Assembly (NCBI RefSeq): GCF_052324685.1
Contig: NC_135221.1
Location: forward strand, 5,155,739-5,219,738
DNA from: Brachyhypopomus gauderio
Lineage: Eukaryota > Chordata > Actinopteri > Gymnotiformes > Hypopomidae
DNA length: 64,000 nucleotides
Direction of reading: 5' to 3'
Shown piece after piece: positions 1,554 to 58,584 of the stretch. Each line of letters opens with the position of its first letter. The stretch's first letter is position 1. A program made the translations under genes and the position numbers. The notes beneath the pieces are model-generated. The model had not been told where the DNA came from and searched no databases. It was given only the letters and a program-made list of their open reading frames with translations.

Positions 1554-1974
1554 TATGCTATCGTTTTGTACTGCCCTTCTGGGGGAGCCACTGGTGTTCT
1601 TCAAATCCCTAATCCTCTGTTTGTGGTGTAATGACCGATGCTGTGGTCTAGAGTGAACCTGGTGCCTGTGCGTGTGCATGTATGCGTGTGTTCGTATATG
1701 CATGCGTGTGCCTGTACCGTTAAACCTGAGCCCGCTCCCACCCCGCTCCCCTCACAAAAATAGTTTCCTCTCCTAATTAACTGCAATAAAGAAAAATAAA
1801 TTGAGAGGACAGTACAGCTTTAGAAACGCAATACACAATAATATCTGTACTAGATAACTTCTTAAGCAAAATAAGATTCCAACAAAATAAGGTTCACAGC
1901 TCCGTGTTCCTCGGGAGTGGAATATGTAAACAATGCGCACGAGGGCATCAAAGGACTGAATCGAAACTAGCTAG

Positions 1975-17947: not shown

Positions 17948-19072
17948 ATGAAGACGGTGTTTGTCACAGTGGGAACGACTTCTTTTGATGACCTGATAGT
18001 CAATATAACGTCAAGTGAGGTCGTAAAGGTAATGTAAAAAGTTAGTTAATAACATTCAGGGTACAAGAAGGAACTGACAGCTAGCTAGCGTTAGCTATGT
18101 GACTATAAAACATCCTAAATGTCATTTGGCTGGCGAGCAGAACATATAGAAAATACAGTTAACTAGTTATAATTTTACCATATGCCTGATTAGACGGGCA
18201 CAAACACTAAACAATAGCTTAACGAATCTCTATTTCAGACAGTTTTGTCACTGTTCTCATTTGTGACTCTTTAAGGCCTTGTTGGATCTTGGATATACAG
18301 ACGTGGTGCTGCAGGTTGGCCGGGGGTCAGTTGCCCCAGACCCACGGAGTTGCCCCGGCCTGAGGGTGGAGGCCTTCAGCTTTAAAGAGTCCATATCCGA
18401 CAACATCCAGCTCGCTGATTTGGTCATTAGTCATGCTGGTGGGTGCTTTGATGTGTTCATGAACATTAATGTATAACACATAATGTGTTATTAACATTCC
18501 CACTGGACTTCCGTGGGGTTTTCATCAGTGGGATTTCATGTTTTCTTCAAGGAGCTGGCAGCTGTTTGGAGGCCCTTGGCGCTGGCAAGCCTCTCCTTGT
18601 AGTGGTCAATGACAAGTTAATGGACAACCATCAACTCGAGCTCGCCAAACAGCTGCAGGCAGAATCACACCTGCTCTACTGCACCTGCAGGTTTGGTGCA
18701 GATGGGTTACTTCACACAAATTCACTAAAGAATCATTCGGGGGTCTCATTTTATTAAATGTGTGCTCTTAGCGACAGATGTCAGACCACATGTCAGATTT
18801 CTCGGGTTATACCTCTATACTTCATTGATTTAGGTCAATCTTGCAGCAGATATTAACAATTGTCTTGTTTTATATATGTCTACATAGATGGTATGTTTTT
18901 ACTAACTGATGTTTATCCTCTTTTTAAACTTCCTTTTGATTTTGTTTTATTTTATTTCAGCACTCTGCTGCAAACCCTCAGGAATATGGACTTGTCTACT
19001 TTGGTGCCGTTTCTGCCTGGTCAGCCTCAGAACTTTGCAAACTTTCTGGACAAAGCTGTTGGACTTGTCTGA
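17948..19072 (+). CDS. alg13: ALG13, UDP-GlcNAc transferase catalytic subunit (short form)
   Basis: ALG13 pairs with membrane-bound ALG14 on the cytosolic ER face and adds the second GlcNAc to dolichol-PP-GlcNAc in N-glycan synthesis. There are four exons: 17948-18028, 18276-18438, 18552-18690 and 18961-19072, all with GT-AG borders and consistent phases. They give about 164 aa, the size of the short ALG13 form. Visible family motifs: [13 protein letters not shown] at the N-terminus (nucleotide-fold start), [36 protein letters not shown], and the terminal [15 protein letters not shown]. The stop in exon 4 and the il2rg start 389 bp later leave no room for the OTU and Tudor extension found in the long mammalian isoform, at least in the usual position. 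No AATAAA lies between this stop and il2rg; the first is at 19590. Confidence 0.95.
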
Positions 19073-19461: not shown

Positions 19462-21995
19462 ATGACTTGGGTACGAACTTCAAAGATTCTTGTTTCTTGT
19501 TTTTTATTTGTCATCTTTTTTCATGGATATTTGTCTAGACCTCAACCCAGTAAGTGTTTGAACAGCTTTCACTTTATTTATGTCTTTGGAATAAAATTCT
19601 TTCTTGGAGTCTGTCAGTGCAATGATCCTGATCTTAACGTTTTAATTTGTTGTAAAAACAAATGACAGAATTTGTTATAGTTATTGTATTAGAAGCGGCG
19701 TTTTAGATTAAGTCATGTAAAATAAAAGTTTCTCTTTATTCAGTACGGCTCAGAAAATGGGTCTGGAAAATTTTCTGGGGATTTCCCATGCGTTACTTGC
19801 GTTGACGTGCAGAGCGTGGTACTTAGAAAAGATATTTATGCCAGCTTTGACAAATTGTCTTAAATTCTTCTTTCTGAACCTTAACAATTCCTTCAGTGTC
19901 TTCTACACATTTTGTTTAGTATTATCTAAAGTTGCAGAGTAACTGGAGGACAGTAGCAAATAACAAATAATCGGTGACCCAACCACCACATCACAACATA
20001 AGACTGGACCAAGAAGTGCAACAATAATGATGTGCAATACTGTTCACATTCTTATAGATATATATTTTTTCTGATCATATTCTTATATAAATGTTTCTGT
20101 TTATGTTCTAACTGCTATGAGTATTTGTCATCCATTTTGCCTTTTGCAGGTCTGAAGTGCACAAGTTTGGATTGTAAGGTTAACATCAGTTGTACAGTCA
20201 TCAACCTTGAGTATGTGGACTGCAACTGGACCGCCCCACCAATGCAGGAGAAGAACTACACCTTCCACAGTTTGTACGCCTATGTGGATCTCCATCTTCA
20301 CTTCTACACCCGTCCTGTGTCTGTGAAAGTGCAACAGGTATATGTTTGTTTATGTATGTTTCATATAATGTTTCTTTTCTCTTCAGATTTAAAGGGCAAA
20401 GTTCATATCACAAGTGTCCCGAGTACCTTCAGGAGCACAAGTATAATCTTGGCTGTAGGATTCCTTTTGAAAGACAAGATCAACGGTTTGATTGGTTCTC
20501 TACAAAGCTGTACATGGGAGGCAATCGACACATCAATAAAAATTACACAAGACTCCTAGAAAGAGGTAAGACGTATTGTTCAATAAGACATATAATCACC
20601 CATTTCCCCCCTAAATACCGAAAGGTTTTTTAACTGCAGTTCAGACCCCTCATCTGAGTTTTATAGATTTTTTTTTGTTGTTGTGGCCCACATTTATTTA
20701 TTCGTTCTTTAAAGTATTTTTAAAGATATTCGTTGCATCAAATTAGCATTGCTTAATTAAATGGTCATGTGTCATATGGTCGTATATCTGTACGTTCCAG
20801 TGAAGCTCAATCCCCCTTGTAACGTTTCTGCTGAATGGAATTCCAAGGATGAGCTGTGTGTGTATTGGGTGAACAATGTTCATAAGCTGAACTGTGTGGT
20901 CAATATGGTGCGTTATAGGAGAGCTTCTGACCCATGGCAGGTATAAAACACTTTTTGGTTATTTATTTATATGTTTACATAAACACACACACACAAACAC
21001 AGGCTTCCAGAGAAACAATGTTTTGGATAATCCTAGTGATTAATTTGGTACCTGTAGTTTTTTTTGTTTTAGAGTGCATGATACATTTTGATGTGTGTAC
21101 TGCCATGAGAAAATGTTTTTATTACTGGTTTATTTGGTCACAGCACGAATATTGAACATATTTATTCTTCCTTTCATCTGTTGCCCCATGCAGATTCACA
21201 ACACAGGGAGGTCCTCTCTGTACTGCATGTCTTATGCCTCTAAGGTAGCTGTTTACACTTTCCAAGTAAGGAGCAACATTGATGAAGCATGTGGTCCTTC
21301 TAAGCTTTGGAGTGACTGGAGTGATCCGGTCCAGTGGGGAAACCACACAGGTAGAGTTGAACATAACATGATGTATTTAGCTTAAGAAAATGTTTCTGCC
21401 AGTAGAAACACTGAGTGGTCAGAATGGAATTCTAACAGATTCTCAGATTCTTTTACTAATTTCAGTTTTGTTTGTCTGTTTGTCTGTCTTTGGATTCTCT
21501 ATTGCTTTCTAGAAGCAGTGGAGTGGCAGTCAGTTTTGGCCTATGTGTTGGGAGCCATTCTTCTTATCGCCCTTGCAGTGCTGCTGTGCTATTGTGAAAG
21601 GTATGACATGTACTTTATACATACTTTATAGGTATGTATGGGTTTTAGAAGTTTTGACTTCTAAAAATCTTACCCCTCTGGGCACAGGATAAAGGTAGTT
21701 TTCCTGCCTGCTGTGCCGGACCCAAGCAAGAACCTGCAGAATTTGTTTCAGAAATACAACGGGAATGTAGAGGTAAGTCTGTGTGTCCCGACCCTACTTT
21801 TGCTCCAAACCATCTCATGGCCTAATCATCATGCACAATTTTCAACTCTCCCCCTGCCCATCTCAGAGCTGGGTTCACGTCTCCGAAGAGCTGAAGGAGG
21901 CTTTCGAGCCAGACTACACAGATGTTGCCTGTGTCGTGTGCGACCCCAATGCCCCACCAGGCTGGGACGTGCCTACGGAACAGCCCTCCTCTTAA
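19462..21995 (+). CDS. il2rg: Interleukin-2 receptor common gamma chain
   Basis: Type I cytokine receptor subunit shared by IL-2, -4, -7, -9, -15 and -21 receptors, which signals through JAK3. Eight exons were deduced: 19462-19549, 20150-20273, 20387-20565, 20801-20940, 21194-21350, 21513-21600, 21688-21772 and 21867-21995. Phases agree and give 329 aa. Exon 1 encodes a hydrophobic signal peptide (KILVSCFLFVIFFHGYL) with a GTAAGT donor. D1 contains CTVINLEYVDCNW, matching the mammalian CFVFNVEYMNCTW. D2 ends in LWSDWSDP (WSxWS box). Exon 6 is the transmembrane helix (LAYVLGAILLIALAVLLCY). The tail has a Box1-like VPDPSKNLQNLFQKYNGN and SWVHVSEEL, like human PTLKNLEDLVTEYHGN. The exon 2 donor (GTACGC) is weak; a better-looking GTATAT 64 nt later leads to an immediate stop. 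The poly(A) signal is at 22996. Confidence 0.93.
19590..19595 (+). terminator. AATAAA within il2rg intron 1, possible alg13 poly(A) signal
   Basis: First canonical AATAAA after the alg13 stop codon (a second is at 19721). Both lie beyond il2rg exon 1, so if either serves alg13, the alg13 3'UTR overlaps the il2rg start on the same strand. Confidence 0.45.
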
Positions 21996-31369: not shown

Positions 31370-31590
31370 CAATTCCTTTAAGCACACCCTCGCCGTTGAA
31401 CCCGCCTCTCGGGCGCTCCGATTGGCCAAAACTCTCGGCGGCCCGTGTCAATCTACCGCTTTCAACCAGTAACACCACAGCTAGCGTCCGGACTTGTTAG
31501 ATTTCACAGCGGCTCGGCTTTTGTTAGAGAGTTGGCCGAGATCGAGAAAGACAGCGGAGCCGTATTCATGCACTTACGGGGAGGAAAATG
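31370..31590 (+). promoter_or_regulatory. CpG-rich promoter, probably of the sestrin gene
   Basis: GC-rich block with two or more inverted CCAAT boxes (gattgg at about 31361 and 31420) and a CpG-dense 31380-31580 segment. It lies just upstream of an ATG-containing exon-like sequence and is the nearest promoter-like region 5' of the sestrin exons on the same strand. Confidence 0.5.
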
Positions 31591-31653
31591 ATCATCTGTG
31601 CGAAGAATATGGACTATCGCCTCGGAACTCAGTGCCAGCGCGTCCAGAACCAG
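31588..31653 (+). CDS. Candidate sestrin exon 1
   Basis: An ATG with A at -3 opens 22 codons (MIICAKNMDYRLGTQCQRVQ...) ending CAG before GTCGGT. Phase 0 matches the phase-0 start of the sestrin exon at 38134, so direct splicing gives an uninterrupted 437-aa protein. The sequence has no strong similarity to known sestrin first exons, which are variable. The conserved GPSxFIPEKE segment of other sestrins would then be absent, unless a diverged exon such as 37728-37819 supplies it. The donor is weak. Confidence 0.35.
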
Positions 31654-31764
31654 GTCGGTTCGCGATACTGTAACGCGTACGCGGCGCTGTGCTCGTCCCT
31701 TAACCTAGTTATCTGTCTCTTTTCTAACGGACCGTGGTCTCCTCGGCGGCGGTGCAGGAAGCCC

Positions 31765-31860
31765 TATGTGTACGCTAGCTACGTTACCTACGCTAGTTAC
31801 GTTAGCTACACTAGCTACGCTAGCTACGTTAGCTACGTGAGTTACGTTCGCTACGCTGGC
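31765..31860 (+). repeat. GCTAGC/ACGTTAGC tandem tract
   Basis: About eight degenerate 12-13 bp units of the type tacgYtagctacgt directly downstream of the promoter-like island. It reads as an Ala-Ser-Tyr-Val peptide repeat in one frame but is probably untranslated. Confidence 0.75.
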
Positions 31861-33922
31861 AGCTGACGCCATCCAGCTGCATTTAAGTCCGCAAGCTCGT
31901 CAGCTTTCAACACTTATCGTGATAATCCAGTGGTTACGTGCCTTTTGTCCATTAATTCATTCGCTGTTTACCTTTTAAAGCCAAATATCTGAAATTATCC
32001 AGTTAATGTAGATATCCCACAGTGTTGCCTAGCTACCTAACCCAGCCGCCGTTTGCGTAAACCCTATTTTACGGCGGTGTATCCGAGCACGTCGTGTTTA
32101 TCTGATAATACGGGCTGTTTAACGAACCTGTGATCCGTGTTAGGGGGGTAAATAACCACGACAGACCCGTCGGAGGCTAACGGCGGCCAGCCAGCGGGGC
32201 TGAGGGGGCGTCTTAGCTAGCCGAGCTGCAGCTAACACGAACTCAGTCCTCCGGGTGTAATGGGTCAAACTTTCCCTACACGGTCCCGACACACACACCG
32301 ACACCGGGTCGTGGGTCCCCCGGGTCGCGGGTCCTCCACCACCCGACCGGTCCGCTGTGGGAGTCTGATTAACAACACTCGCTGTTTTCTGCCCACAGTC
32401 TGAAGGGATTAATGTAGCTAACCGGCTAACGTTAGCCCATTGAGATGGCCATAACTAACTAACTAGTGGTCTCGCTGCCCAACTAGTGAGTTAAATGTGA
32501 AATATCGCTGTTTATTAAAGTCTCTAAGATCCATCTGGGGGGTTTCTAACATGTTTATAGAAACCGAGCAGCGGGTACTTTATATTCCGTTTATGTCCGT
32601 GTAACTATTGTGCACAAAGGGGGAGGGGGGTTGCATGCTATTTTTTTATTCATAAACTCCACATAGAATAAAGTATTTGACGTTTGTGTTGGTGTGTAAG
32701 TGTAATCCAAGCTGTGAATAGTGAGACTGGTTCATTTTCACCTCAGGTTGGATCGTACCTGCAATTATAACGCGCAGTTTTATTCACAATGCAACGAGAT
32801 TTTCATTTGGACTTGGATTTTCATTCAGTCTTCTGGTTTACTGCCTTGTTGTTCGTTGATAATTACATTTCCGTCAATAAATCATGTAAATACACGCAGA
32901 GTTTGGGTCTGTGTTGTTTGAATGAGCCTCGACTGCCCATACAGCCACCAAGCTCATTTTTGGCAATTTATATGGAGGTGGTAACCTGGACAAAAAGGGT
33001 TGCTGTCAGGACCAATAAACCTGGTTATATGCACAGTACCAAACGAGAATCGATGCTTTTCCATATGTGTAGACTGTATATTTGAACGCTTTGCCGTTTA
33101 GTTATCTGTATTGTGAACCTCTTTTTGTTAGCGTTTGTGCGCCGTGATGCTGATACACTGCCAATCAAAGTTGTTTTTCTCCTCTGTTGCCTGCTGTTCC
33201 TTTGCCGGCCGTAAGGGGTCGTTGCGGGCACAAACTTCTTTAGCGTTTTTAAGAACAATGGATGCGTGTGTCCTGTATTAATCTATCTGTTGTTTTCCCC
33301 AGTTTGGTGTCCTTTTCTCGTGCTCTGTTTATCCTGTGTAATGCATATCTGTGGTAAATACGGGCTTAATTACATAATCATACAATGAACATTAATTGGG
33401 AGCCGGGTGAACGTTGAGGAAGGTCATTGATTCTCTTTTTATAAGTGAAGAAATACTTTTTTTCTTTTAATAAGCACTGTAGGCTTTTGTCTTAAGAAAA
33501 TCTGTGTTTGCCTAATTCAAATATGGGTAGCAGTGGCACTACAGACACTGAAAACACTGGATGACTCAACATGTATTTCAGACTTGATACAGAGTGGTTT
33601 ATCTCTTGTTGCAGAACAACTCTGGACATTTTAAGTAATCCCTAGAACAAGGCTAATAAGCAATTTGCGTAAAGGAAGAAATGATATGATACTTCACTGT
33701 AAATGGTATGAATAACCTAATGGAGATGGCACATCACACTGAGCTCCTGCACGTGTGTGAATTACGAATAACTGGGCTCACCCAGACTTTTGTGAAGGAT
33801 ATTTGTGTGGTTCATTGTTTCTTGTCAATCAAACTGCATTATCAAACCACATAGAATACATGGGCATAAAACTGCTGGTGTCTGTCTCCGCAGAAGACTC
33901 AGTGTGTGGGTCTGTCTGCCTG

Positions 33923-33955
<33 letters not shown>

Positions 33956-34036
33956 CAAGCTGCAGCTGGCTGTTTTGTTCCCCTCTCTGGCTTCAGGTTG
34001 CGGAGCCAGAAGAGTGTTTCTACTGTGGCAAGAAGG

Positions 34037-34075
<39 letters not shown>

Positions 34076-37000
34076 AGAAACAGCAGCAGGGACACTTGCG
34101 CATGACAGGGAGAGATCCCTCCAGGCGCTCCAAGAATGTAGATTGAATATCTCCACCAGCTCTTACATGGTTCCTACACTGGAGCCTTCTCACTTACTTC
34201 CTTGTTAAGATCTTGTATAAAGGTGCAGCGCATGGGCGAACTGTTATTGTCTTAACGGCGTCTGTGCTTATCTGCTCTTGTCTTCTCATCTTTGTTCTAT
34301 CCTTTCCTTCCCCACATCGTTCAGAAAGAGCAGATTTGACATTCCTAATATTTTTGTTCTATTTAGGAGGCTTCTTGTAAACGGTCGTCTTCAAACGTAA
34401 CCTGAGCAGAGAGAGAACTTGTGTTGCATTAAACCAAACGCATTTAAATCTGCCTGCCAAAGGCCATTCAAATATATTCAAATCTAAATGCTGGTTGGTT
34501 TGCCTATGACAAGGTGGATGTAAGCAGACACCACAGACCAGCTGTGCTAGTTTTGAGTTATTCTGTATTTGAATGTACAAGCCATAGCTAAGCAAATTGG
34601 TAGTAGGGGCAATAAAGGGGAAACTATAAAATCCCAGTTAAAAAAGTTATTGAGTGTTGCTTCAATCTCATCATGAAAGTGCCATCCTAAACATTCAGTT
34701 GAAGTGGCGTGGGGACTTGCCTGGAGGACGTGTTGACTGGCTTCCTGTTTCATGTGTAGTGTGGGCAAGGGCATGTCTGTGCATGTTACTGATGGCCATG
34801 CCGAGGATCCTATTGACGGCAAATAGCCGCGTTTGACGCCGTCTCTTTGGATAATTGGGGACGTTCTGCAGTAGTAATTTTGGCTAAGATTTTCTCCTTG
34901 GCTGCCATTTTGTGTTTTAAGAATCTTTTCCATCAATCACCCACTCGTAGAACATGGCACTTTTCCCTGCTGGAAACTCCCTTCTTAAGGTCCTTCTTGG
35001 ATGCTTGTGTTAGTCCTGTCGCTGACACTTGGCTGTAAGTTCCACTCTATTGAACCATGATGGCAAGTTGACTGTCTTTATTTACAGTAGCCTGTTTTTC
35101 TGGGTCACTGCAGTGGAGCTGTGGGCATTTGGTATTGAGCCCTGTGACATGTGATCTATTTAGCAGTGAATGTGCCCCTGGAGAGTCCTTGTGTAGAGTG
35201 GGGTCCTGGGCTGTTTGCTAGAGTGTGAGGGTAGCATCTCCTTCCCTCATTAACTTGGTAGTTAGCCTACACTTTAATTGGAACATTATCTTTGACATCA
35301 TGATGACGTTTGTGTCCCCTTCATATGTTGGTTGCCCCCCACAGGTGTTCCCTCTGGCAGTGATGTTCATTTTCTTTGCATATATTACTCGGATTTAGCA
35401 GAAACAAACCAGAGGTTTAAAGTATCTGTCTGCGAATTAAACTGTTTTAAGTTCCATTAAAATTACAACTTTTCTAGAAGTCATGGATTCTGTACTGGTT
35501 TTAACACTTTAACCTGGAGATGGATTAAATGAGTGGTGCTTAATTTTGTGTCTAGACTATATCTCAGGGAACTTTACATTTTGACAGTTTTTTTTGTCCC
35601 GTATTGTAGCTACAGTCTTGTAATATATTTTTATTTGGAATTTTAATCCAAGTTTAAACCAAAGTTTAAACGACGTAGCTATAAATTCTTAAGTTTATAG
35701 CTACATAAGAGCCATGTTGAGATGAATGTTTAATTATAGAACAAAATCATTCATAAATTGGATTAACTGATAACTGAATTTTGCCCTGCAGAATATTGAG
35801 CTCATAAAAAAAATCGCTAGCTGTTCCAAGTGCAGGTTGTTATTCAAGATGTTCAGTCATTCTAGGTAACCTGCTTTATGCTAGTGTTAAGCTCACTGCA
35901 ATGTAACAGCCCCTCACGGTGTTGCCACGGTCAGACCCCCGTGACCTACTTTGCCCTCGTGGTTGGCATAAAGAGAGAAGCGGTGGAAACGCTACTGCGA
36001 AGACGCTCGCGTGTTCCGCTGGCTTGAATATAATCTCTCGTATTCCGAGAGATTGAATATAATCTCTCGTATACGGAGCGCTTGAATGTAGTGGTGTTCT
36101 GGTGGAGGGCACCATCAGCTGACTCGTCCAGGGACGGTGGGAATGTTGGCACTTTGTTGCCCGGCACCTCTTGCCGAAGAGAGGCCTTTCAGCTCTGCTC
36201 TCCGCAACTGCTATCCCAGCTGTCCGCCTCAGATATTTATAACCGCCCAATTCTGATGTGACACGGGCAACTCGGCCTCCGCCGGGCAGGACAGGGAGAC
36301 ATCAGCGTTGGACTGGACATGTGGACACCCACGTTGTCCTGCCTCTCTGCTAGTGTGGCTTCATGCTTGGGAGTTTGGAATTTGTTCTGCTTAATGAGGT
36401 TTAGGCCTGGCCTCTGTACTATTTATTTAATTTATCTGCTTGTGTTTATTTTTTAGTTTGTTTATTTATATACCTCCTCCGTTTTGTAAAGGGAATGTAA
36501 AGATCTTTTTTTTTTCCCCTTTCCCCATCTAACCTATGTGACCTAATGCAGGTTTAGTTTCTTATTTTTTTATTTCAGCCTCTGTCCAATGAGTAAGAGA
36601 AACATTTAGACATCTATGATGGTCGGTTTCATAGAAGTTGTGTTGCAAGAATACGCGGCCCCATTCAAGCTCGGTCAGAAGCCGATCCTGACCCCCCCTG
36701 TGTGTAACCGACCTCCTTCCCACCATGTCAGCCTGCCGTCCAGGCCAGTGGAGCGGTGGTTTACTCGAAGGAATGACTGCTGCCAGCACTGTTGCTTCAC
36801 TGCCAGCGAAACATTTTGGCTGCGAGAGGCCCCCGTCTCCTGTTTCACATACCAGGGAAAATAGGCCAGACTCATTTTAGTTTCAATAATAACTCCCAAT
36901 AAGAATAACAACTGGATTTGTGTAGCTTTCATCCATTAACATGTCTTACATCCTTGAAATGGCTTAGCCCAGAGCTCCACTCCTCCACTCCTGCAGGGTT

Positions 37001-37727
37001 CAGGGTGCAGCACGCTGTGATTTAATCGCCAGTCGTCATCATCGTTAACTGATGAGTTGAATCGGACACACGGCAGTAGGGGACTGGCCAGACTTCTGCT
37101 TTGGACGTGTTCCTCCTCTAATCGTCTCCCCTTGTCCGCCCGAGGGTCAAGTACGTGGGCCCCGGTGTGCACGTGGACAGATTGGGGAAGTTCAGGGGGT
37201 GGATTCTGTGATGCCCCTCGGACAAACGCAGAGCGGACCGTAGGTTGTTGTCAGGAGGCGCGAGCCGGCCGCTCGCACGACAACAGGATGGCATGAGCAA
37301 ATCTTCCATTTCCTCTGCGCTGCTGTAATGTCAACGCAGTATTCGTCTTCCCTTTTGTCTTGCTCAAGGTTTAAGGAACTAATTGCAGAAAGCAGATATC
37401 CTGCACGTAAGGATGGATTTAAGCAGACGGCACATTCTGTCTGTACGCTCCCCGTGTCTGTGCTGAGCACCGGACAGGCAGACGTCTGTCTGGCTGTTGT
37501 CTTTTAAGACTTAAAAACCAGACATGCAGGGTGCATGTCTACCCCTCACTCACTCACTGCATGTCTCCAGGATCCAGCACGGAGGACTTTTGGTTGGTTG
37601 GGTTTTCTTTCCCTCCCTCCTCCCTCTCTCTCTGTCTGTCTTCTTTTTTTTTTTCCTGGCTCTGGAATTATATGAAAGATGCTTCTGGTGACTCTGCTTC
37701 TATTTTCTTTCTCTCGTTCTTTTTCAG

Positions 37728-37819
37728 GAGTCCAACAGGACTCCTTAGAGACCGACTGGAGCTGCATTACCCACGGCAGAGTCGTGGCCCGTTACCATTT
37801 TATAACGCTGCATTTGGAG
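37728..37819 (+). other. Candidate diverged sestrin exon
   Basis: A strong acceptor (ctttctctcgttctttttcag) precedes an open frame containing LLRDRLELHYPRQSRGPLPF, which faintly recalls the basic stretch and RGPSAFIPEKE of SESN3. Ending at GGA before GTCAGC would join 38134 in phase. The donor is poor, and the 5' phase does not match the 31588 exon. Treat as speculative. Confidence 0.2.
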
Positions 37820-38133
37820 TCAGCGTGCCGCAGTCCGGCCCAAACGCACTCAAACGGGCTACAGTCAAAATGGAAGCCTGAACTGTGGTGTTTTTTTTTT
37901 TTTTTTTTTCTTCTTAATTCAGTTTTGTGGCTGATCCGTTTTCTTCAGTGGTATAAAAGCACTTGTATTCATATCGCAGGCAGCATTGTTTGTCTCTTAT
38001 TTTACTGGTACTTTATGCGGGAGCTTTTTTTTTTTTTTAAGCCAGTCTTCAGCCACATGCGTTTTCCTTCCTTTTCTGTGTTTGGCTGCGTTATTTGTGC
38101 CGGGCTCACACTCGTGTTCTCTCCTCTGCGTAG

Positions 38134-41065
<2,932 letters not shown>

Positions 41066-41350
41066 ACGCCCGCGGGGCGCAGTGCGGAGGGAGACCGGGC
41101 CGGCGGGTGGAGCGGGCCAGAGATGGGTGGAGCGGAACAGGCTGGTGGGGAGCAGTACGTCCTGTTGTTGTTCACGGCTCCTGTATGTTCTCATTTTGAA
41201 AGATCACTGAAGCATGACCCAAGGTACTGCTGTGAAGAAAAGAAAAAAGAAAAACAACACAAAAAAACAAAAACCTTCAAGGTGACGCTTGGAGTTGGAA
41301 AAAACTAAATCTTACTTTTTGTCTGCATGTTGTTCCATTACTCCTTTATT

Positions 41351-41464
<114 letters not shown>

Positions 41465-43587
41465 CACACACGTATGTGTGTCCAGTGTGTTTTTCATTTT
41501 TTACTTTTCTTTGTTTGAATATCCTTGTTCCAGATGTGCAATTACTTTTATTCTATTACTGTTATTGTGAATAGTTTTTATCATTGTGTTTAGTGTTTTG
41601 TTGTTATTTTTGTCTGTTGAATCTGTGTTGACTGGGAGAATAGACGTCAGTGTGAGCTGTGTAGTATTGAGTGGTGAGACTGAGACAAAACAAGTGACTG
41701 AACTCTCCCAAATCAGAGTCTGTGTTTACCGAAGCTACGTGAACAGACGGATGATGATGGAATGTTTGACAAGGTTTCTGAATGTTTCATTTCGATTTAT
41801 GTTCAGAACAAGATACAACAGACAAGCTGGCAAAGATTACATGGCTATGAATTCGTTTTAATAGCACTTTTAAGATAATCACGTTTAGGCACCAAATACT
41901 CGCAGCAGCATCTGACTGATCTTGAAAACCATCGTAAAAGGATGTGCTGGTTGTGACTCCTTTTACATATCCAGATGTTCTGCTAACTCATCCAGCATTA
42001 ATGTGAATAACGAAGATGGTAAACACAAATCTGGGATTCAGAAGAGTCTGGCAGAACTTTCAAATGATTCTGTTGCATTTTAGGAATTTTTACTGCAAAA
42101 TAGTAACCTTACGATGTGCACTCCACCGACTATGGGGGTTTAGAATAAGCTTGTTTAATATTGAAACATATTGGTTTAGGTCAAATGAAGGATTTTGTTT
42201 TATTTTAAACTGATCTGCAAAACGGTTCAATGATATTTTGCCATCTGTGATACTTAAAAATGCGATAAAGGTCAGAGGTCAGCCTGCCGTGATGCTTCCT
42301 GTAATTGACCTGCACAATTTGTTTCCTTGCACTGGACTTTTTGCACAAAACCCCATAAGTGACCTGCATTGCCTCTGAGCAGCTGTTTTCGGAACAAATG
42401 ACCTGGTGAGGCCTAGATTCACTGGTACCACACTGATGCCATAGTTACTTTAAATGTTTTGGTTGTGGAAAAAAGCCAAACTTGATTATTTGGCTAGGTA
42501 AAGCCATGAAAGTATTGAAGCGTTGCGGTTTTCTACTGCTCATGTAAGGTACAGTAGGCAAAGAAACATGGGCACCATCATTGATTTGTTTTCTGATTTA
42601 TTTATTTTCCAACACATTGCATTACTATATCACTATGGCTATGTTCAGACTTTTTTATAGTACTCAAATTGGATTTGTATTTTCTTTTTTTTTTCTTTCC
42701 AAATCTGATTGGACTTAGGAATTTGGACAATAATATGGATTCGAACTGAAGTGTTGCAATGTTGAGAAGATGTGTAAGAGAGGGTAATTAATCATTTGAT
42801 TGCCTTTCTAAACATAGCCAGTGACAGTGTTGTTCATTTTTTTTGGTGGGGTGGGGGGGACAGATGGTGCTGAATCTCATAGCTGTCATTTGTAATGCGT
42901 TGTGGGATTCTTGGAAGAACTAGTAAGTGCATATCAGTAGGGCACCAAAACAAACGATTTTTCAGTGTGTGCTAAAATGTTTGGGGGGGGGGGCATACTT
43001 CCTAAATGCCGATTGAAAAACCTTTTGGAGAAGAGACTGTGTCATTTGGTCTCGGACTGTGGTTTCTGATGAACCACATCACGCGGCCACAGCCAGCTTC
43101 ATTAGCGCGGTGCCTTCAGCTTCTATCGGTAACGAACGTGGGCTGGTGGTGTCACTGGACCGGGTGGCGTTGGAGCGCTTGGGTGTGTTGGACTGGGCCC
43201 TGGTTTGTAGCGTGGCCACCACTTCTTATCGCATGGTGGTCAAAGCTGTGGACGAGGAGCTCGCAAGCAAGGACCGTTCATCCGTTTTGCTTGGAGAGGA
43301 CCAGCCGGCACACAAACGCAGCGCTTCTCTGCACCATCGGGCTGCTCCATGTTTTTATGGAGCTTGTGTGTGATGTTTGCCTGTCGTACCATCAGCGTGT
43401 CTTGATTTGGTTTCTCCCCGATTGCCTTTTCTGACGAGAAAGAGCAACAGCGGACTCCTTTCCCCTCCTTTTTCCTTTACAAACTCTCCTGTTGATGGAA
43501 GAACTTAAGAACTGTGGCACGGAGACCGAGAGACTGGACAAGCATGGCTTTTGCCAAGTTGATATTTACCACGTAAATGTAGGGATT

Positions 43588-43593
43588 AATAAA
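43588..43593 (+). terminator. Candidate poly(A) signal, sestrin
   Basis: AATAAA in attaataaatgaaaac context about 2.5 kb past the stop codon. Other signals may be used. Confidence 0.4.
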
Positions 43594-44113
43594 TGAAAAC
43601 AAACCAACAAAAAAGGTCAAAACTAGAAAAATCAAGCAAAAAAAAAAGTTTCTTCAAATATGAGCTTATTTTTTCTATAAAGATATGCTATACCACATGC
43701 GTGTCTCCTGTTGTGTGTTGTTTCTACCTGTTTTCTTGACTCTTGATCTGTGGCTCTGCAGTTCTTTTTTTTTAAATCCTAGTCTAAACTAGATTATACC
43801 TACCGTTGAGGTTCTGAATGTTGATGCTCCAGCATGGTGGTACAATACAACTGGTGGTTCCTCACCACTGGCCCAGTAGCCCCATCTAGTGGTAGGTACA
43901 TGACCTGCACTAAAGGGAGGCCTAAAAAATGACATAGCCTACCAACTGCAGAGGGCACGTTTTTAAAGTTCGTGTGATTTGACTGTCTATTTAAATAGTC
44001 TATTATTTGCGAAAAGTACGTTTGTGAATTCAAATATACTCTCGGACGTGCACCACAACCGGCTAAAAGCAGGTCTGAAAGTCTCACATAAAACGGCCAC
44101 TTTCTTGCACATA

Positions 44114-44386
44114 CATGGACGTAGTTTTGATTTCACAAGTGGGGGGGACACAACCTGGGGTGGCGAACTGTTAAGCGGGGGGGGGGGGGGGTGCTGCATG
44201 ATCCTAGTGCTAGATTTGTCGCTATTTGGATATTGGTTTTTTTACCGTTAAAAAGTGGGGGGGACATGACTTTGTCACTACTTAAATATTTGGTTTTAAC
44301 TGTAAAAACTGGGGGGGACCAAAACCGGCTTTTGAAAAAGTGGGGGGGACATGTCCCCCCCGTCCCCCCCCAAAACTACGTCCGTG
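44114..44386. mobile_element. G-rich MITE with perfect 8-bp TSD
   Basis: Termini catggacgtagttttg and caaaactacgtccgtg are inverted with one mismatch. The flanking duplication tgcacata is exact at 44106-44113 and 44387-44394. The interior repeats a tgggggggaca-type unit four or five times, with runs of 7 to 14 Gs, and ends in a C-rich complementary stretch. Eight-base duplication suggests a hAT-type insertion. Confidence 0.85.
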
Positions 44387-44394
44387 TGCACATA

Positions 44395-47300
44395 TTTCAG
44401 GCTGTTAATAAACCAGCTAGCATTACGGTTACACTTTTTTTTCTTATTTATCAAATTGTCTGTTTCCTTGCGGGCGACTGTCTCTGTTTCAGTCAGATGA
44501 TTCAAACGTACAGTTAAACCACAGCGACCCCCCTGCTGTCTAATCAACACGCTGCACGGGAGAACCTGCTGTCAGTTATGAGATACGACACTTCAACATA
44601 GGCAGAAACTCCTGAGTGCCTAACCACTCCAACGTTAAAGTGTATTAATACATTTTATTGAATATTACACTGGTACACGCTCATTCCAATGCCTATACCA
44701 TTAAACCACTTTTAACACGTGTATCAAAGTTACCAGGGGCTTTAAGTCAAGGCCCATTAAGGATTATTCATTTGTCTTTGGATTATTGAATTTATTTCTC
44801 ACCTCTCAGGTTTAGGGTAGTGTAGTGCTTAAATTGTTATTCTAATGAGGTTTTTAATCCTCGGTTATTTTTGATCAAAATGAATACAAATTAATATTTT
44901 CCAAGGTGCTCATGGTGTCTATCACTAGTTGGTCTTCTTGATTAATGCTACACTCATTTTGATAGCACTTTGGTTTACATCTGTTTTAAAGATACTTACT
45001 TGCTTTGTATGTTGAGGATGACAACCTGTTATTTCGTAAACATGAACAACACCAGAACAGATCACGTTGGTCCATCTGGGCCTGAGACTTTTGAACTCCC
45101 ATGTCTTAAGGCTATGTCTTAAACTGCCACAGATAAATAATGTATTGTTTATAGGAAACACCAAAGGAAAAATATGAAGCACTGCCTTAGAACACAAAAT
45201 GACATTAGAATGAGAACATGGTGGTGAAATTTTAAACAAAATTTTGGAAGAACCCACCTGGAATATTTTGCTTAAATACTTTAGCTTATGTAAAGGTGTA
45301 AAGAAACTAGACCTCAAGTCGTTTGTTTCCATTTCTCTAATCTACAGATTCAGTGCAGTTTTAGAAGGAATACTATGCAGGTATCATAGATCATCATATG
45401 ACAAAGTGCATATAAAGACAGATTCTCGCTGAACCTATCTGCCAGTATACATGCGAGACTGGAAATATCCATTTAAACCACCACTTGGTTATTTAACTAA
45501 GATGCCATTAATAAATATTTGATATAATCACAAAAGACAATATGAGTTACACAGATTAGGTTTATTTCAGTTATCCGTGACTGGTTTGACAGTCACCTCT
45601 GGCTAACATAAGAATGGCAGAGGAAAGGAAGAAAACACAATCAAATCAAAGCAGTAACGTACACATACAGTAAATTGGCTATGCACAACTCACCAATCTT
45701 TTATGATGCCCTCCCCCATTAAAAGCAAACAAAACTCATGAGCAAATCCTACCCATAAACTAACGTTTAGTTTCAACTGGATACGCAGCAGATTCTCTCA
45801 AGAGAAAAGAGGAAAAACTATAACAATTTTATACACAAAAAAGCTAATAGCAAAACAGGAAAATGTGATTTGGAGTCAAGGTATGGAAACTTCTATATAG
45901 AAAGTCTGCGGCCCTCTCTCAGGACTTCTGTGATGTTCACTCCTAATGTTCAACTAACCAGCTTCTCTCAACGGAACACTTCAAATAAAAATGCTGTTAG
46001 TCACTACACCCACTATTGGAAAAAAAGGCATATATTTTGTCAGTCACTTGGTAATTAAACCTATAGACTAATTTGACAGGCAGCCACGTTAATATTATCA
46101 TGTATCTAATACATCGTAGTCTGTGTGTTTTAGTATATAATCGCAGAGACTTGTCCCAATATGACCAATTCAATCTTTAAAATGATTGCTTTAAAATCAA
46201 CATATAAACTTGTACATCCAATTTTAGCACTACAGCCTGCTTGTCTAAATGTAGCCTAATGGTTAGTCTTATAATGCACATTGTAACCAAACGGCCACAT
46301 CACCATCATTCCAATGTTGGAAACATACAGACACCGCATACACACATGTAGCAAAAGCCCAAAACATAGAGACACTGCATACACACATGTATGACCAAGC
46401 AAAAGCTCAAAAGATGAGAGCAGTTATGTAAACGGTTAATTGAAATACAGATCAATAGCCATAACAAAATAACACTATGTTTCTTTCTTTTTTTGTTTCT
46501 TTTTTTTAAAAAAAAAGACTGATTTCAAGAACTGTAGTGCATTGTTACTTGATGTGTGGCGAGAGACTCATTCAATGGCTAACCCACCTCTGCATTCAAA
46601 TATTATTAGGATTCTACAAAATTAATTATATGTTGGGGATAAAATAGGTTATTTTATCTTTCTATTTTCTACATTTAGAAAATGTTGTGATGTGCTGCAT
46701 AAAATGATACAAGGCCCTAAAATCTAAATTATGGCCCTCTCAATTGTCATAGAAAACGTCTAGCACCGACCAATTGGATGAACACATATCCTGTGCAGAG
46801 AGCAGCATTAACAGTTCAAATCTAATATACAGAAGATATTACAGTTAAATGATGAAAAACGTCCAATCCATATAAACAATGTGAATGCAGAAAGAAGGAG
46901 TGAACCTGATCAACCTGATCAACCAATTAAGTGAAAAATGTCAAGATTTCTAAAACGGAATATTAAGATGAAACAAAGGGGAGGAGCAGAATGCGTCGCT
47001 CTAGACGAACATGCTATAGTGTTCATTGGCAGTTTTACAACGTCTGTCTAAATTCGGTAAATGCATATACGTTATGTAACTCCTCAAGTGGAACATAAGT
47101 CATACTCCTGTAATATGAAAACATTTAATTGATGGCTGGGTGACATTTAAAAATATCATCAAAGAGTTGTAATGTGATTATCTTGCCACTTCCTACAGGA
47201 AGTAATTTTTAAAATGTCTATTATTATTATAATTGTTATTATTATTGTATCATTAACATTATATGTATTATATATATTTATATATTTTTATTATTACATT

Positions 47301-49260
47301 TTAACCCTGAGAGTTAAACATTGCATTACTCATCCACTTTCTGCTTCATTAGCTTTTTTGTATCTCCAATTTTTTATATAAAGATGAAATCGTATCAATT
47401 TTCTGAATTGTCTGGCAAGTGTGATTGAGATCAATGCATCCTCGCCTTGATGGCATTATCAAATCAAGAGATCACATGGAAAACTCTAATTTGCAAAGCA
47501 CGTTATCGTGTTAAATGCACCCATGCAATCCATTTATTTGACAAAAGAAAATGTTAAATATTTTCTGAACAGGTTCAATTATGTAAAGCTTATCTACACT
47601 GCAATACTTTCATCTCAAGCCCAATCAGGCTGACATGCAGTTCTTAGTGTTCCTTTGGTTATGTATAAAATCTACATGCATCTCATCTTTTACAAAAATA
47701 AAAGATTACATAGAAAATGACCGTTAAAATGATCGGATCATTTATGCTGTTTTTTGTTTTTGTTTTTTTTTTTAAAAACACACATTAACAGTGTATTTTC
47801 TGATTAGTATGAATAGTCTAATATAGCCCCATCTAGAATGGATGCTGAAACTATAGTCAATAAACTCACTTTTTTGTTGTTTCTCTATAACAAATTTATA
47901 CAAAAGATGTTAGTACTATATAAGAGATAATCACTGAGAAAATAATGTCATGTGAACATTTTTCTGTAGCATCTGCTGACAAATGAACCTTTTGAATGAA
48001 ATTATTCAACGTTATTTTGGATTCTTTTCTCCATTTGCTGAATTTAAGCGCTTAAAGGTACTAGAAACATCAAACATCGCACAAAAAACTTCAGATATTG
48101 CATCCTGCAAAAGGGAACTCCATTTCTGATATCACTATGCCATTCAAATTGCTGGCAAGTGGTAAAAATCCACAGAAACAGAATAACTAAAATTCTATGG
48201 TAAAACCAAAATGCCCTGTGTATAATCACATTTCTTCATACGGTTAATAACAACACAATTTAAGAATAAGTGATCAAAGTCTCACTCAGTGATCTGCCTC
48301 AAGTCCTCAGCACACAAGGGAAACACACTTTCCTGAGCAGATGTTACAAATGCCAAACTAAAAGCTCATTAAACATCATAACAGTCAAACCAGCTTGAAA
48401 TATTTAATTTTAACTTCGTTTTGCCTCCTCCGTCCAAGAAAGAAAACACGAGTATACTTCGTACCACTGAGTCTGTGCTATTGGAGCACAGCTTCACTGT
48501 CCAACTACGTATTATGTTCTGGGCTCAGTAAATCCATACCAATTCAAACTCTATGGTGAAGATTGTGTTGTTGTTGACAGTGTTTCTGTGACATAATGCT
48601 GCCTTCAGGAGGTGGTCACAGAGTAGACAGGTGAGCTGGGTCACACACCTGTTCCACCAGTTCATTCAAGTGATCAATGCAGCATTTTTGTATTCTGATA
48701 TTCCATTCGTTTTCAGTTGCTGACCAATGTAGGAGGGTCCTCGCATTTAGTGGATCTGCAAAGTTTGATTCCCCTGGCCAAGTTAGTCTTGTCTTTAGAT
48801 AAAGGAAGAGGAGTACCATCTCAGTCCTGTGCTATTTTGGTATTAGTAGAAGGCAGTACTGTAATAAACATGATTAATAGTTTATTAGTTGTGCTTCTTC
48901 ACTACTGTCTTCTCTTCTTTTCTCTACTCAAGAACTCTGTCATCCGATAAAACAGCAACTTTGAAAAACCCTTGCAAATATTGTATGAAAAAAATTGATT
49001 TCAAGACATTGCCGGTGTTCTGTGTCTAGGTGTCCAATAGCCCACGTCCCCATACACATTGGCACTTGAATAAGACTCCACTCCACCCTACCACCCACAA
49101 AAAAGAAGCCCAAGTCTTTTTAGTATCTTAAACCAAAAATAATTAACGCTGATACAATGGCAGATGTAGGGGCAAATATTTCCCTGCAGGGGTAACATTT
49201 TAGGTAATGCACCACACGAGTATCCACCATTTTGTTACTTTGTTAGGGGTGAAGGGCTTT
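44395..49260. other. AT-rich region: foxo4 3'UTR and intergenic
   Basis: No coding signal. Part of this must be the foxo4 3'UTR, which runs toward lower coordinates from 49261; several TTTATT words (AATAAA on the minus strand) occur, for example near 47870, 45557 and 44651, and I cannot choose among them. A roughly 55-bp direct duplication lies at about 46325-46410. Confidence 0.45.
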
Positions 49261-49261
49261 C

Positions 49262-49446
49262 CTGCAAGAAGAATAGAGAGAAGAGTGATTAAACACCCTG
49301 CACTCGGACACGTTTCCCCTACACTGACATGGTACAAGGAGTTTAAAGGCAGGCTTATTATATCATGGAAGATAAAAAAAAATGTCTACTGTGTATCACC
49401 TGCAATTACTATTGTTGCTTAAAAAGCAAACGGGTATGCACCTTAC
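49262..49446 (-). other. foxo4 3'UTR intron (inferred)
   Basis: On the minus strand, 20 bases after the foxo4 stop the sequence reads GAGCAG|GTAAGG (donor at 49446), and 185 bases later CTTCTCTCTATTCTTCTTGCAG|G (acceptor, exon resuming at 49261). Mammalian FOXO1 and FOXO3 also have a final non-coding exon, so a 3'UTR intron is conserved in the family. Being less than 50 nt from the stop, it should not trigger nonsense-mediated decay. Confidence 0.65.
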
Positions 49447-49467
49447 CTGCTCCTATCTTTAGCAGAG

Positions 49468-51569
49468 TTAGCTGGGCACCCAGTTGTGAGACGAGCTCTG
49501 TGTGGTAGCTGGCCCAGGATAACTTTGTCCGGCTGGTACAATGGGATCAAAGTTGAAGTCAATTCCATCTCCGTCCATAAGATCACTGTTGATGATGTAA
49601 TCAACATCACAATCTAGGTTCTCTGTGAACATGTCAATATCCAAGTCTGTGGGGAGACGGTCCTGAGAGGGCAAGAAGCAAGCCGGAGAGCCAAACTGGC
49701 CCTGAAGACCTCCATTCCCACTTTCTGAAGGAACAGCCCCATGCTGAAGTAGACCTCCGCCGGGCAACTGATGCGGAGTCTTCATGGCTGTTAGCTGCGG
49801 TGGCTCCTGGCCCATGCCTGGTAGCAGCATCCCAAAGCCCATTTGTGTGAGTTGCTGCTGTGGCTGTTGGGATTGGGGCTGAAGGGCCATTTGCCCCACT
49901 GGGCTAGATTCCATACTCTTGCCCAATATCATTTGACTGGGCTTGCCTGGGTTGCCAGAGATGGGGCCCCCAAGCCCCAACAGATTAGCACCTCCCTGGC
50001 TGGGCATGAGGGGATCCACCTGAGTCATCATGACATCACTGGGTGGGGGCGAGTCTGAAGTGAGTAATGCCTCAAGACTGGAGGGTACGTGAGTATTGAA
50101 GCCACTTCGAGATCCAGGCCCGGGCAGTGGATTAAACAGAGAGTTTCCAAAGTTTGATGAGCTTGTGCTGGAACTTCCTCCCTGAACTGAGTTCTGTGGC
50201 CCTGGCTGGGTTGGTCCCTGAGGTCCCTTCACTGGCTGACGCTGACGATAAGAGGGAAAGTTTGACCCGCGAGGCAGCAGGGTGGATGCAGAGGGCAGTG
50301 GTGTAGGTGGAGCTGGTGGGGCTGTGCTTGGGCTCGCACCACCTTGCTGCGCCGTTATTAAAGTAAGCCCGTCGATTAGGTCCAGTTCTTCCATGAGGGT
50401 CTCGGTAAGTGTAGGTGGAAGGCTGCCGGTGGGATAGCCACTCAGGCGACCATCCTCGGGTAGGTCATCTTCGTCTTCTTGACCTGGGGCGATTGGAGAG
50501 AGTCTGCCGCTCAGAGTGCTGGCGTTAGAACTGGTGCGTGGCCTGAAGCTCGTCCACATGTCCTGGTCGTCCAAGCTACCGCGGGACGATGGACTGCTGC
50601 TGTTCACCCCCCACTTCCCAAACTGCGATGGAGGACCAGGACTGTCGGCACCCCCCGCACCAGACACACCCTCAGCCTGCAAGGAACCACCAGGGCCACC
50701 TATACCACTGGCTCCCGCCTGCTTTTTGGTCTGCTTTGCCCTCATGCGGCTTTTCAGCAATTTAGTGCTATTGTCCATGGAGGCGGCACGGCGACGAGGG
50801 GCTTTGCCAGTCTTCCCCCCCTCGGGGTTGAGCATCCACCAGGAGCTCTTTCCTGTAGACTCATTGTGTACTCTCAAAAACTTGTTGTGGAGGGACAGAT
50901 TGTGACGAATCGAGTTCTGGGTAAAGACAAAATAACACAAGAAAATAAATGAATAAATGAGATGACATGCCACGACACAAAAAGAGTTAAAGCAAGAGCT
51001 AATGGTTAGTTTGGAGTCTACATGTTATAGCACATATAACCCAGATATTTGATTTGTATATTTCTGGGGTAAATGGAGTATATAAGCATGGAAACAATAC
51101 AATGAATCTATGTCATTTGAACTGAAATGATCTGTACCTTCCATCCAGCAGAGCTGTTGCTGTCTCCTTTATCCTTAAAATACGGCACCGTTTTCACCAT
51201 CCAGTCATAGATCTGTGCCAGAGTGAGTCGTTTCTCTGGTGAGTTCTCAATCGCCTGGCTTATCAGATCAGCGTAGGATTGATTCCCCCAAGCATTGCGA
51301 CGGGATGATCCCTTTCTTGGCGTGGCCCCTCCCACTCCTGTCACCACTCCTCCCTCCGAGACGGCAACCTTTTCAGGTTCGGATACGATTGGCTGGGGCT
51401 CTTGTTTGTCTTCCTCGGCAGGCGGGGTTCCGGCAGTGGACTCGGTGCCGTCTGTTCCCTCTGCTTTGACAGCTGAGATGTCGGGTCTAGGTAACGGCCA
51501 TGTGCACGACCTCGGTCTGCTCTGAGGCTCAAAATCTGGGTCAATTGGGGGAACATTGTCTGCCTCCAT
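49468..51569 (-). CDS. foxo4: Forkhead box O4 transcription factor
   Basis: Akt-regulated forkhead activator of stress-resistance, cell-cycle and apoptosis genes. Two coding exons: 51138-51569 (144 codons, donor GTACAG) and 49468-50916 (482 codons plus TAA), giving 626 aa, longer than human FOXO4 (505). Akt sites: RPRSCT (Thr23), RRRAAS (Ser190) and FRPRTSS. The forkhead domain spans about residues 90-180 (RRNAWGNQSYADLISQAI, recognition helix NSIRHNLSLH, WWMLNPEGG). The intron falls between Lys144 and Asn145, the FOXO-typical site, but is only 221 bp. The C-terminal transactivation region has the FOXO4-type LEALLTSDSPPPSDVMMTQV and the terminal DLMDGDGIDFNFDP. The ATG at 51569 has A at -3 and G at +4; the frame stays open further upstream without an earlier in-frame ATG seen. 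Pro/Gln/Gly-rich insertions account for the extra length. Confidence 0.95.
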
Positions 51570-58200: not shown

Positions 58201-58584
58201 GTAAGTCATTCTAATATATAGCTAGTATATAATATTATTCCCTAAACGTTTCCACACACGTTAACCGGCCGAAGTTAACGCGCTATAAAGCATAAAACTG
58301 ACTAGCAAGCTAGTTGGCTAACGCTAAAGTCACTTAGCCGTCTAGCAAGTGTGCTTGCTAGCACTAGTCAGCTTGTAAAACAAATTCAAGATGAACTGAC
58401 CACGCTAGTGTGTCGGGCAGAGTTTAACCAACTGTGTGTTGTTGTGGTTATCTAGTAGTAACGACATGGGTTAACATCGTCGTGGTGTCAGTTAGCTTTG
58501 AATAGGGGTTCAACTCTTGGTGTGGCCGTTTAACATTAACCATTTATGTGTACTATAAAATGTTCTGTTCCTTAGGTTGCTTAC

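What the first reader, a model, noticed from the sequence alone, without database searches (positions are those of the whole stretch)
31588..51569. A sestrin gene sits next to foxo4: candidate fourth vertebrate sestrin
Human SESN1 is adjacent to FOXO3 on 6q21 and SESN2 lies on the same arm as FOXO6 on 1p; mammals have no sestrin beside FOXO4 on X. This window shows a complete set of sestrin C-terminal exons about 8.4 kb from foxo4 (facing it, convergent). The simplest explanation is that the ancestral FOXO-SESN pair was quadrupled in the early vertebrate genome duplications and the FOXO4-linked sestrin survived in fish but was lost in mammals. The protein mixes SESN1-like and SESN3-like segments, as expected for a separate branch.
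Basis: partly seen in the sequence, partly recalled or inferred. Interest (0 to 1): 0.82.

Follow-up and report, generated by a model that had tools for sequence, protein, structure and literature searches.

The report
Fourth sestrin gene beside fish foxo4
A ray-finned fish carries an intact sestrin gene beside foxo4, where mammals have none; it is probably a fourth sestrin from the early vertebrate genome duplications, and it has lost the lid that lets other sestrins sense leucine.

Summary
Window 31588-41065 (+) holds a sestrin gene of 437 codons with eight GT-AG introns (Pfam PA26, 577.7 bits, profile 2-445 of 445). Its stop lies 8.4 kb from that of a convergent foxo4; il2rg, alg13 and rap2c relatives lie on the other side. 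Searches of this assembly find three sestrins: sesn1, tail-to-tail with a foxo3; sesn2, on a foxo6 contig; and this one. No separate sesn3 was found, but the assembly has gaps.

Location favours a fourth 2R ohnologue: FOXO and SESN share one amphioxus chromosome (PMC8805411). Sequence rejects a duplicate of sesn1 (p 0.00025), not one of sesn2 (0.13), and leaves SESN3 kinship open (61/38 in one tree, absent in two). In simulations, SESN3 orthology with an ordinary stem was recovered in 60 of 60 and 40 of 40 runs; in the data it is not clear. Gar and shark could not be tested.

New here: eight codons are lost in frame, removing the leucine-lid residues T374, Y375, T377 and also T386; R390 is K. 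The GATOR2-binding (WSLAEL, DDYDY) and redox residues stay. I predict a leucine-insensitive mTORC1 brake; this is inferred, not shown.

The parts
31588..31653 (+). sestrin exon 1 (tentative), 22 codons, ATG start
   Evidence: phase 0, donor GTCGGT; weak likeness to SESN3 exon 1 in the alignment; inferred
38134..38322 (+). sestrin exon, start of SESN-A domain ([13 protein letters not shown])
   Evidence: tblastn 1.95e-18 to recalled SESN1; AG/GT, phase 0
38647..38829 (+). sestrin exon with [10 protein letters not shown] redox motif (C125, Y127, H132 equivalents) and LAHQPW (LAHRPW in paralogs)
38983..39213 (+). sestrin exon with WSLAEL GATOR2-binding motif
   Evidence: motif role PMC11429811
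39393..39507 (+). sestrin exon, SESN-B linker part
   Evidence: phase fit; weak tblastn, E 0.65
39699..39826 (+). sestrin exon, SESN-B linker part ([16 protein letters not shown]..)
40229..40395 (+). sestrin exon, start of SESN-C; eight codons shorter in frame than in paralogs, leucine-lid TYNT and T386 missing, R390 to K
   Evidence: alignment; DNA read
40577..40721 (+). sestrin exon with DDYDY GATOR2-binding hinge and ASEK (HSEK in paralogs)
40976..41065 (+). sestrin last exon ([29 protein letters not shown], stop)
51138..51569 (-). foxo4 exon 1
   Evidence: translation; Forkhead Pfam; boundary read by eye
49468..50916 (-). foxo4 exon 2 with FOXO-TAD, ends HNWVPS stop
   Evidence: upper boundary read by eye
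20131..21992 (+). il2rg-like cytokine receptor exons (approximate span)
   Evidence: translation; only a sub-threshold CRLF2_D1 Pfam match (25 bits, cut-off 27.3); name from reading
17948..19069 (+). alg13-like glycosyltransferase exons (approximate span)
   Evidence: Glyco_tran_28_C 96.8 bits; name from reading
14270..15071 (+). rap2c-like Ras-family gene (approximate span)
   Evidence: Ras 192 bits; C terminus CCTACVVQ read; name recalled

Best explanation
The window carries an intact sestrin gene that is the FOXO4-linked member of the ancestral FOXO-SESN pair: a fourth vertebrate sestrin born in the 2R genome duplications, kept in this teleost and absent beside human FOXO4 (the human state is recalled). 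Predicted action: it folds as a sestrin and keeps the redox residues (C125, Y127, H132) and both GATOR2-binding motifs (WSLAEL, DDYDY). It has lost the leucine-pocket lid (T374, Y375, T377) and T386, and has K at R390. It should therefore bind GATOR2 whether or not leucine is present and hold mTORC1 down whenever the gene is expressed, so that control shifts from leucine to transcription. Shown: gene structure, neighbours, motif states, the other two sestrin loci. Inferred: 2R origin, leucine insensitivity, GATOR2 inhibition.
For: Intact nine-exon frame with canonical splice sites and near full-length PA26 match. Introns fall at matching sites in sesn2 of the same genome as judged from tblastn edges (IM|AAA, HIQ|, Q|DY, IR|YDD, SEK|VHV), so it is not a retrocopy. 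Tail-to-tail FOXO-SESN pairing recurs: foxo3 C37:493396(+), armc2-like exon C37:525 kb (+), sesn1 C37:532280-534690 (-). sesn2 and a foxo6 share C6. [quoted passage not shown] Pairing with fish sesn1 rejected, p-AU 0.00025. Simulations with W (the window protein) as SESN3 orthologue: stem 0.20, recovered 60 of 60, none at or under 0.085; stem 0.147, matched to the LG+G4 stems of SESN1 and SESN2, recovered 40 of 40, none at or under 0.085. The data give about 0.085 at 61/38 (mixture model) or no such clade (LG+G4; complete columns). Failure to recover the pair occurred only with tiny stems (26 of 60 at 0.03; 12 of 40 at 0.02; 0 of 40 at 0.08). The second CEP57 relative lies on C118 beside pde2a-like exons, not near the window. 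Lid loss: alignment; T374 and T386 mutations abolish leucine binding and R390 coordinates the carboxyl (PMC11429811); an apo-locked SESN2 changed at E451, R390 and W444 was used to form a GATOR2 complex (PMC12136191, passages).
Against: No gar, shark, coelacanth or second teleost sequence was reachable, so age before teleosts is untested directly. No separate sesn3 was found, which is also what one expects if this gene is sesn3. W shares six clean quartet patterns with SESN3 against one each for SESN1 and SESN2, and 12 exclusive states against 8 and 6. Holding W with SESN3 is not rejected on complete columns (p 0.229). W with fish sesn2 (0.133), human SESN2 (0.165), the SESN2 clade (0.446) and the SESN1 clade (0.078) are not rejected either. 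Where W+SESN3 is not recovered, the trees join SESN1 with SESN3 (62, 70/72), which leaves W on the SESN2 side. E451, H454, W444, L261 and H86 are kept, so some leucine affinity could remain; SESN3 is reported to bind leucine very weakly with normal motifs (PMC11429811), so motifs alone predict affinity poorly. LAHRPW is LAHQPW here. No expression data. The FIPEKE exon was not found. SESN1 and SESN3 in the tree are recalled sequences.
Confidence: 0.66

Rival explanations
1. It is the fish orthologue of SESN3: the third ancestral sestrin was FOXO4-linked, stayed there in fish and moved away in tetrapods (or moved next to foxo4 in fish).
For: No other sesn3 found; W+SESN3 is the best grouping in the mixture-model tree, 61/38, and is not rejected on complete columns (p 0.229); quartet patterns 6 to 1 to 1; highest shared-column identity is to SESN3, 57.3 against 55.4 and 55.7 for human SESN1 and SESN2.
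Against: An ordinary orthologue stem was recovered in 60 of 60 and 40 of 40 simulations but is not clear in the data; cep57, recalled as SESN3's neighbour in human, is on other contigs here; identity is far below the fish-human sesn1 pair (83.4) and below the sesn2 pair (62.2).
Confidence: 0.25
2. It is a teleost-specific (3R) duplicate of sesn1 or sesn2 that diverged fast.
For: Teleost-like FOXO duplicates exist in this genome (two foxo1, two foxo3, two foxo6 by reading); the long branch (0.86) could hide its origin; pairing with fish sesn2 is not rejected (p 0.133).
Against: Pairing with fish sesn1 rejected (p 0.00025); 3R copies should sit beside the second foxo3 or foxo6, not foxo4; neighbours are rap2c, alg13 and il2rg relatives.
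Confidence: 0.05
3. It is a sestrin that has become mainly a redox or scaffold protein, with the mTORC1 role weakened together with the leucine pocket (a rival on function, independent of origin).
For: Redox residues kept; long branch; lost lid.
Against: Both GATOR2 motifs are kept letter for letter, which fits continued GATOR2 binding.
Confidence: 0.25
4. Decaying gene on the way to a pseudogene.
For: Fast branch, missing FIPEKE exon, lost lid.
Against: 437 open codons, eight canonical introns, GC3 0.81.
Confidence: 0.06

Closest known systems
SESN3 (human, recalled sequence)
   Same: Highest shared-column identity (57.3%) and shared SDIGHLLD, AHxHALxSFVFGS and HL segments
   Different: No TYNT lid, no T386, K at R390, no FIPEKE exon; sits by foxo4, not by cep57
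SESN1 / fish sesn1 (C37)
   Same: Tail-to-tail with a FOXO gene; similar exon plan
   Different: 55.4% identity; pairing with fish sesn1 rejected
SESN2 (PDB 5dj4) / fish sesn2 (C6)
   Same: Redox, WSLAEL and DDYDY residues
   Different: Lid residues T374, Y375, T377, T386 lost and R390 changed
Apo-locked SESN2 mutant E451Q/R390A/W444E (PMC12136191, passages seen)
   Same: Functional analogy only: a leucine-blind GATOR2 binder
   Different: Made in the laboratory and changed partly at other pocket residues; here E451 and W444 are kept

Membership tests
Sestrin family | PA26 profile above its cut-off | tested here: met
   577.7 bits, cut-off 29.4, profile 2-445 of 445
Sestrin family | DDYDY electronegative hinge (called the defining feature in PMC11429811) | tested here: met
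   D406 D407 Y408 D409 Y410 all identical
Sestrin family | WSLAEL motif with S190 | tested here: met
   identical
Sestrin family | C125, Y127, H132 redox residues | tested here: met
   all kept; Q124 is R
Leucine-sensing vertebrate sestrins | TYNT lid with T374, Y375, T377, and T386 | tested here: not met
   all four fall in gaps of the alignment
Leucine-sensing vertebrate sestrins | R390, E451, HSEKVH base | tested here: inconclusive
   R390 is K, H449 is A; E451 and H454 kept
FOXO-linked 2R sestrin ohnologues | tight linkage to a FOXO gene, tail-to-tail | tested here: met
   8.4 kb to foxo4; same relative order for foxo3 and sesn1
FOXO-linked 2R sestrin ohnologues | separate branch older than teleosts | tested here: inconclusive
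   pairing with sesn1 rejected, with sesn2 and SESN3 not rejected, placement weak
FOXO-linked 2R sestrin ohnologues | same gene beside foxo4 in gar and sharks | not testable with these tools
   no vertebrate genome other than this one was reachable; one scan each of genome contigs and viral contigs gave no sestrin
SESN3 orthologue | supported clade with SESN3 | tested here: inconclusive
   61/38 in one tree, not recovered in two others, not rejected (p 0.229)
SESN3 orthologue | linkage to cep57 (human order recalled) | tested here: not met
   CEP57 family matched only at C37:428482 and C118:256251
SESN3 orthologue | linkage to mtmr2 (human order recalled) | tested here: inconclusive
   a myotubularin lies 256 kb right of the gene (C11:5453396-5459041), but it is only 34-38% identical to recalled MTMR2, MTM1 and MTMR1, so it is not mtmr2; mtmr2 itself was not located

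The most novel reading that the evidence does not exclude
Vertebrates began with four sestrins. The FOXO4-linked one (SESN4) survives in fishes as a leucine-blind GATOR2 inhibitor, in a lineage that seems to have dropped SESN3, so that 'three sestrins' in fish and mammals are not the same three.
Probability: 0.33. Interest if true: 0.75.

Novelty: new variant of a known kind. Interest (0 to 1): 0.6.

Why it matters
A 2024 review states that vertebrates have three sestrins (PMC11429811). A fourth ohnologue beside foxo4 would complete the FOXO-SESN quartet expected from two genome duplications, would mean that a fish's third sestrin need not be the SESN3 orthologue, and would offer a natural sestrin with the leucine pocket dismantled but the GATOR2 surface intact, which is a direct test of what leucine sensing adds to sestrin function.

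Tried and rejected
Looked for the FIPEKE exon in 31-38.3 kb: none above background. Looked for sestrins in genome contigs and viral contigs as stray vertebrate DNA, one scan each: 114 and 15 pattern hits, none confirmed. Looked for a perfect p53 element (spacer 0-2) in the window: none; FOXO-type GTAAACA sites number 22 in 64 kb, two of them in 29.5-38.2 kb, not informative. A recalled part of CXorf65 gave only chance-level matches, and reading the frames around the best one showed nothing more. The myotubularin search meant to map the SESN3 block was answered (60 matches); I fetched three of its places. The C11 gene 256 kb from the sestrin is too distant from MTMR2, MTM1 and MTMR1 (34-38%) to be one of them and reads like the MTMR6/7/8 type (recalled); mtmr2 itself stays unlocated. 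The angiomotin search and a search with the window protein itself never got an answer. Literature: searches returned nothing; others gave listings (20 of 39, 12 of 13, 6 of 6, 1 of 1, 10 of 10 and 15 of 26,391 papers shown) in which I saw no fourth or foxo4-linked sestrin in titles or abstract starts. The one hit for 'sestrin4' is a reference number printed after the word, and 'sesn3' in a sea bass paper is only a cited pathway, not a fish gene. Of PMC8805411 I read section 9 with the Fig. 6 legend; the figure and supplement, which may show gar, were not available.
Full report
What is there. The window is C11:5155739-5219738 of a 796.5 Mb, 840-contig assembly with seven FOXO-TAD loci: foxo4 in the window and six that I read, against recalled human C termini, as pairs of foxo1, foxo3 and foxo6. 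That is a teleost-like set. The sestrin gene at 31588-41065 (+) has nine exons that join in phase with canonical GT-AG at eight introns into 437 codons plus stop. It matches Pfam PA26 over profile positions 2-445 of 445 at 577.7 bits. GC3 is 0.81 against 0.51 GC in introns 2-8. The stop of the convergent foxo4 is at 49468, 8.4 kb from the sestrin stop at 41065. On the far side lie relatives of il2rg, alg13 and rap2c; these names come from reading the translations, and Pfam confirms the family level for rap2 and alg13 but only a sub-threshold cytokine-receptor match for il2rg (25 bits, cut-off 27.3). That human FOXO4, IL2RG, ALG13 and RAP2C all lie on the long arm of X is recalled, not from a call.

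How many sestrins. PA26 and recalled human SESN3 both find the same three loci and no other: C6, C11 (window) and C37 (23 matches at E up to 0.001; 27 matches at E up to 10; the tool scores only its best candidates, 26 and 25 here). C37 is sesn1: 83.4% to recalled human SESN1 over 368 shared columns, with an armc2-like exon and a foxo3 39 kb away in tail-to-tail order. C6 is sesn2: 62.2% to human SESN2, with matrilin-like and lck-like exons within 15 kb and a foxo6 on the same contig. No separate sesn3 was found. This is not proof of loss: 23 kb of the 50 kb read on C37 are N, fam76 on C34 runs into an N stretch of at least 2.8 kb right after its second exon, and 6 kb of the 40 kb read on C118 are N.

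Origin. [quoted passage not shown] 6 legend). The window therefore shows the pair at the FOXO4 region, where human has no sestrin; that is recalled, and consistent with SESN1-3 being mapped to chromosomes 6, 1 and 11 (PMC11429811). Intron positions match sesn2 as far as tblastn edges show, so it is not a retrocopy.

Tree. With six proteins (window, fish sesn1, fish sesn2, human SESN1-3, of which SESN1 and SESN3 are recalled) the mixture-model tree puts the window protein (W) with SESN3 at 61/38 and gives it an end branch of 0.86. LG+G4 on 440 columns and the mixture model on 368 complete columns do not recover that pair; they join SESN1 with SESN3 (62; 70/72), leaving the window protein on the SESN2 side, and in the complete-column set W+SESN3 is not rejected (p 0.229). 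Pairing with fish sesn1 is rejected (p-AU 0.00025) and with human SESN1 alone too (0.00019); pairing with fish sesn2 (0.133), human SESN2 (0.165), the SESN2 clade (0.446) and the SESN1 clade (0.078) is not. Clean quartet patterns are 6 for SESN3, 1 for SESN1 and 1 for SESN2; exclusive states are 12, 8 and 6.

Simulations. With a stem of 0.20 for window+SESN3, near the mixture-tree stems of SESN1 (0.19) and SESN2 (0.24), the pair came back in 60 of 60 and its stem was never 0.085 or less; with 0.03 it was at most 0.085 or absent in 58 of 60, recovered in 34. Because those runs were fitted with LG+G4, under which the real stems are 0.147 and 0.145, I repeated them on LG+G4 lengths: stem 0.147, recovered 40 of 40, none at or under 0.085; stem 0.08, recovered 40 of 40, 27 of them at or under 0.085; stem 0.02, recovered 28 of 40. 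The real data give about 0.085 in the mixture tree and no such pair under LG+G4. This speaks for a split near the 2R events rather than at the fish-tetrapod split, assuming clean alignment and a steady model; the window branch is long, so the point is an argument, not a proof.

Neighbour genes of SESN3. The CEP57 family has two matches: one with foxo3 and sesn1 (C37:428482) and one on C118 beside exons that I read as pde2a, none near the window; that SESN3 neighbours CEP57, FAM76B and MTMR2 in human is recalled. FAM76 matched only on C34. A myotubularin gene lies 256 kb right of the sestrin on C11. It could have been mtmr2, which would have favoured SESN3, so I checked: it is 34-38% identical to recalled MTMR2, MTM1 and MTMR1, too little for any of them. 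mtmr2 was not located.

Function. Mapped on SESN2 numbering, the window protein keeps H86, C125, Y127, H132, W189-L194, L261, L389, D406-Y410, W444, E451 and H454. It lacks T374, Y375, N376, T377 and T386, and has K at R390, A at H449 and LAHQPW for LAHRPW. The loss lies within one exon and is in frame (eight codons), in a window without N and beside a 626-codon foxo4 and a 625-codon open exon without frame breaks, so an assembly error is unlikely. PMC11429811 (section 5 part 1 of 2, sections 15, 16 and 18, and passages seen) reports that TYNT is the lid of the leucine pocket, that T374 and T386 mutations abolish leucine binding, that R390 coordinates leucine, that T374, T386 and R390 are over 92% and T377 82.4% conserved in metazoan sestrins, and that WSLAEL and DDYDY bind GATOR2. 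[quoted passage not shown] PMC12136191 (passages seen) used an apo-locked SESN2 to form a GATOR2 complex. The most likely reading is a sestrin that inhibits GATOR2 without leucine control. That step is inferred. Kept E451, W444 and H454 leave residual leucine affinity possible.

Print. In the held library, searches returned nothing, and the listings of 20, 26, 50, 78, 81 and 93 show no fourth or foxo4-linked sestrin in titles or abstract starts (listings are capped); the apparent 'sestrin4' is a reference number. The 2024 review says vertebrates have three. Predicted proteins in sequence databases were not searchable here, so the gene may well carry an automatic name there.

Verdict. Observation confirmed; fourth-sestrin reading favoured (0.66) but not proven; the lost leucine lid is the most interesting new point.

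Noticed in passing
window 29584-30987: 1404-bp element with terminal inverted repeats (CAGAGGTGGG...) and an 8-bp target duplication CTTTCTGT, hAT-like, 0.6 kb upstream of the sestrin start.
   Followed up: partly
window 58576-60450 (+): 625-codon open exon with no Pfam match, to the right of foxo4; not identified.
   Followed up: partly
window 861-1653: Tandem array giving repetitive open frames in several frames.
   Followed up: no
G000:C37:532280-534690: sesn1 exons show several frame breaks and the region has many N, probably assembly errors.
   Followed up: partly
G000 whole: FAM76 family matched only at C34:1431204-1432190, next to N stretches, and CEP57 family at two places.
   Followed up: partly
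G000:C11:5453396-5459041: Myotubularin gene of the MTMR6/7/8-like type (name recalled) 256 kb right of the sestrin.
   Followed up: partly
window 44140-44380: Repeated GGGGGGAC-type segments between sestrin and foxo4 (read).
   Followed up: no
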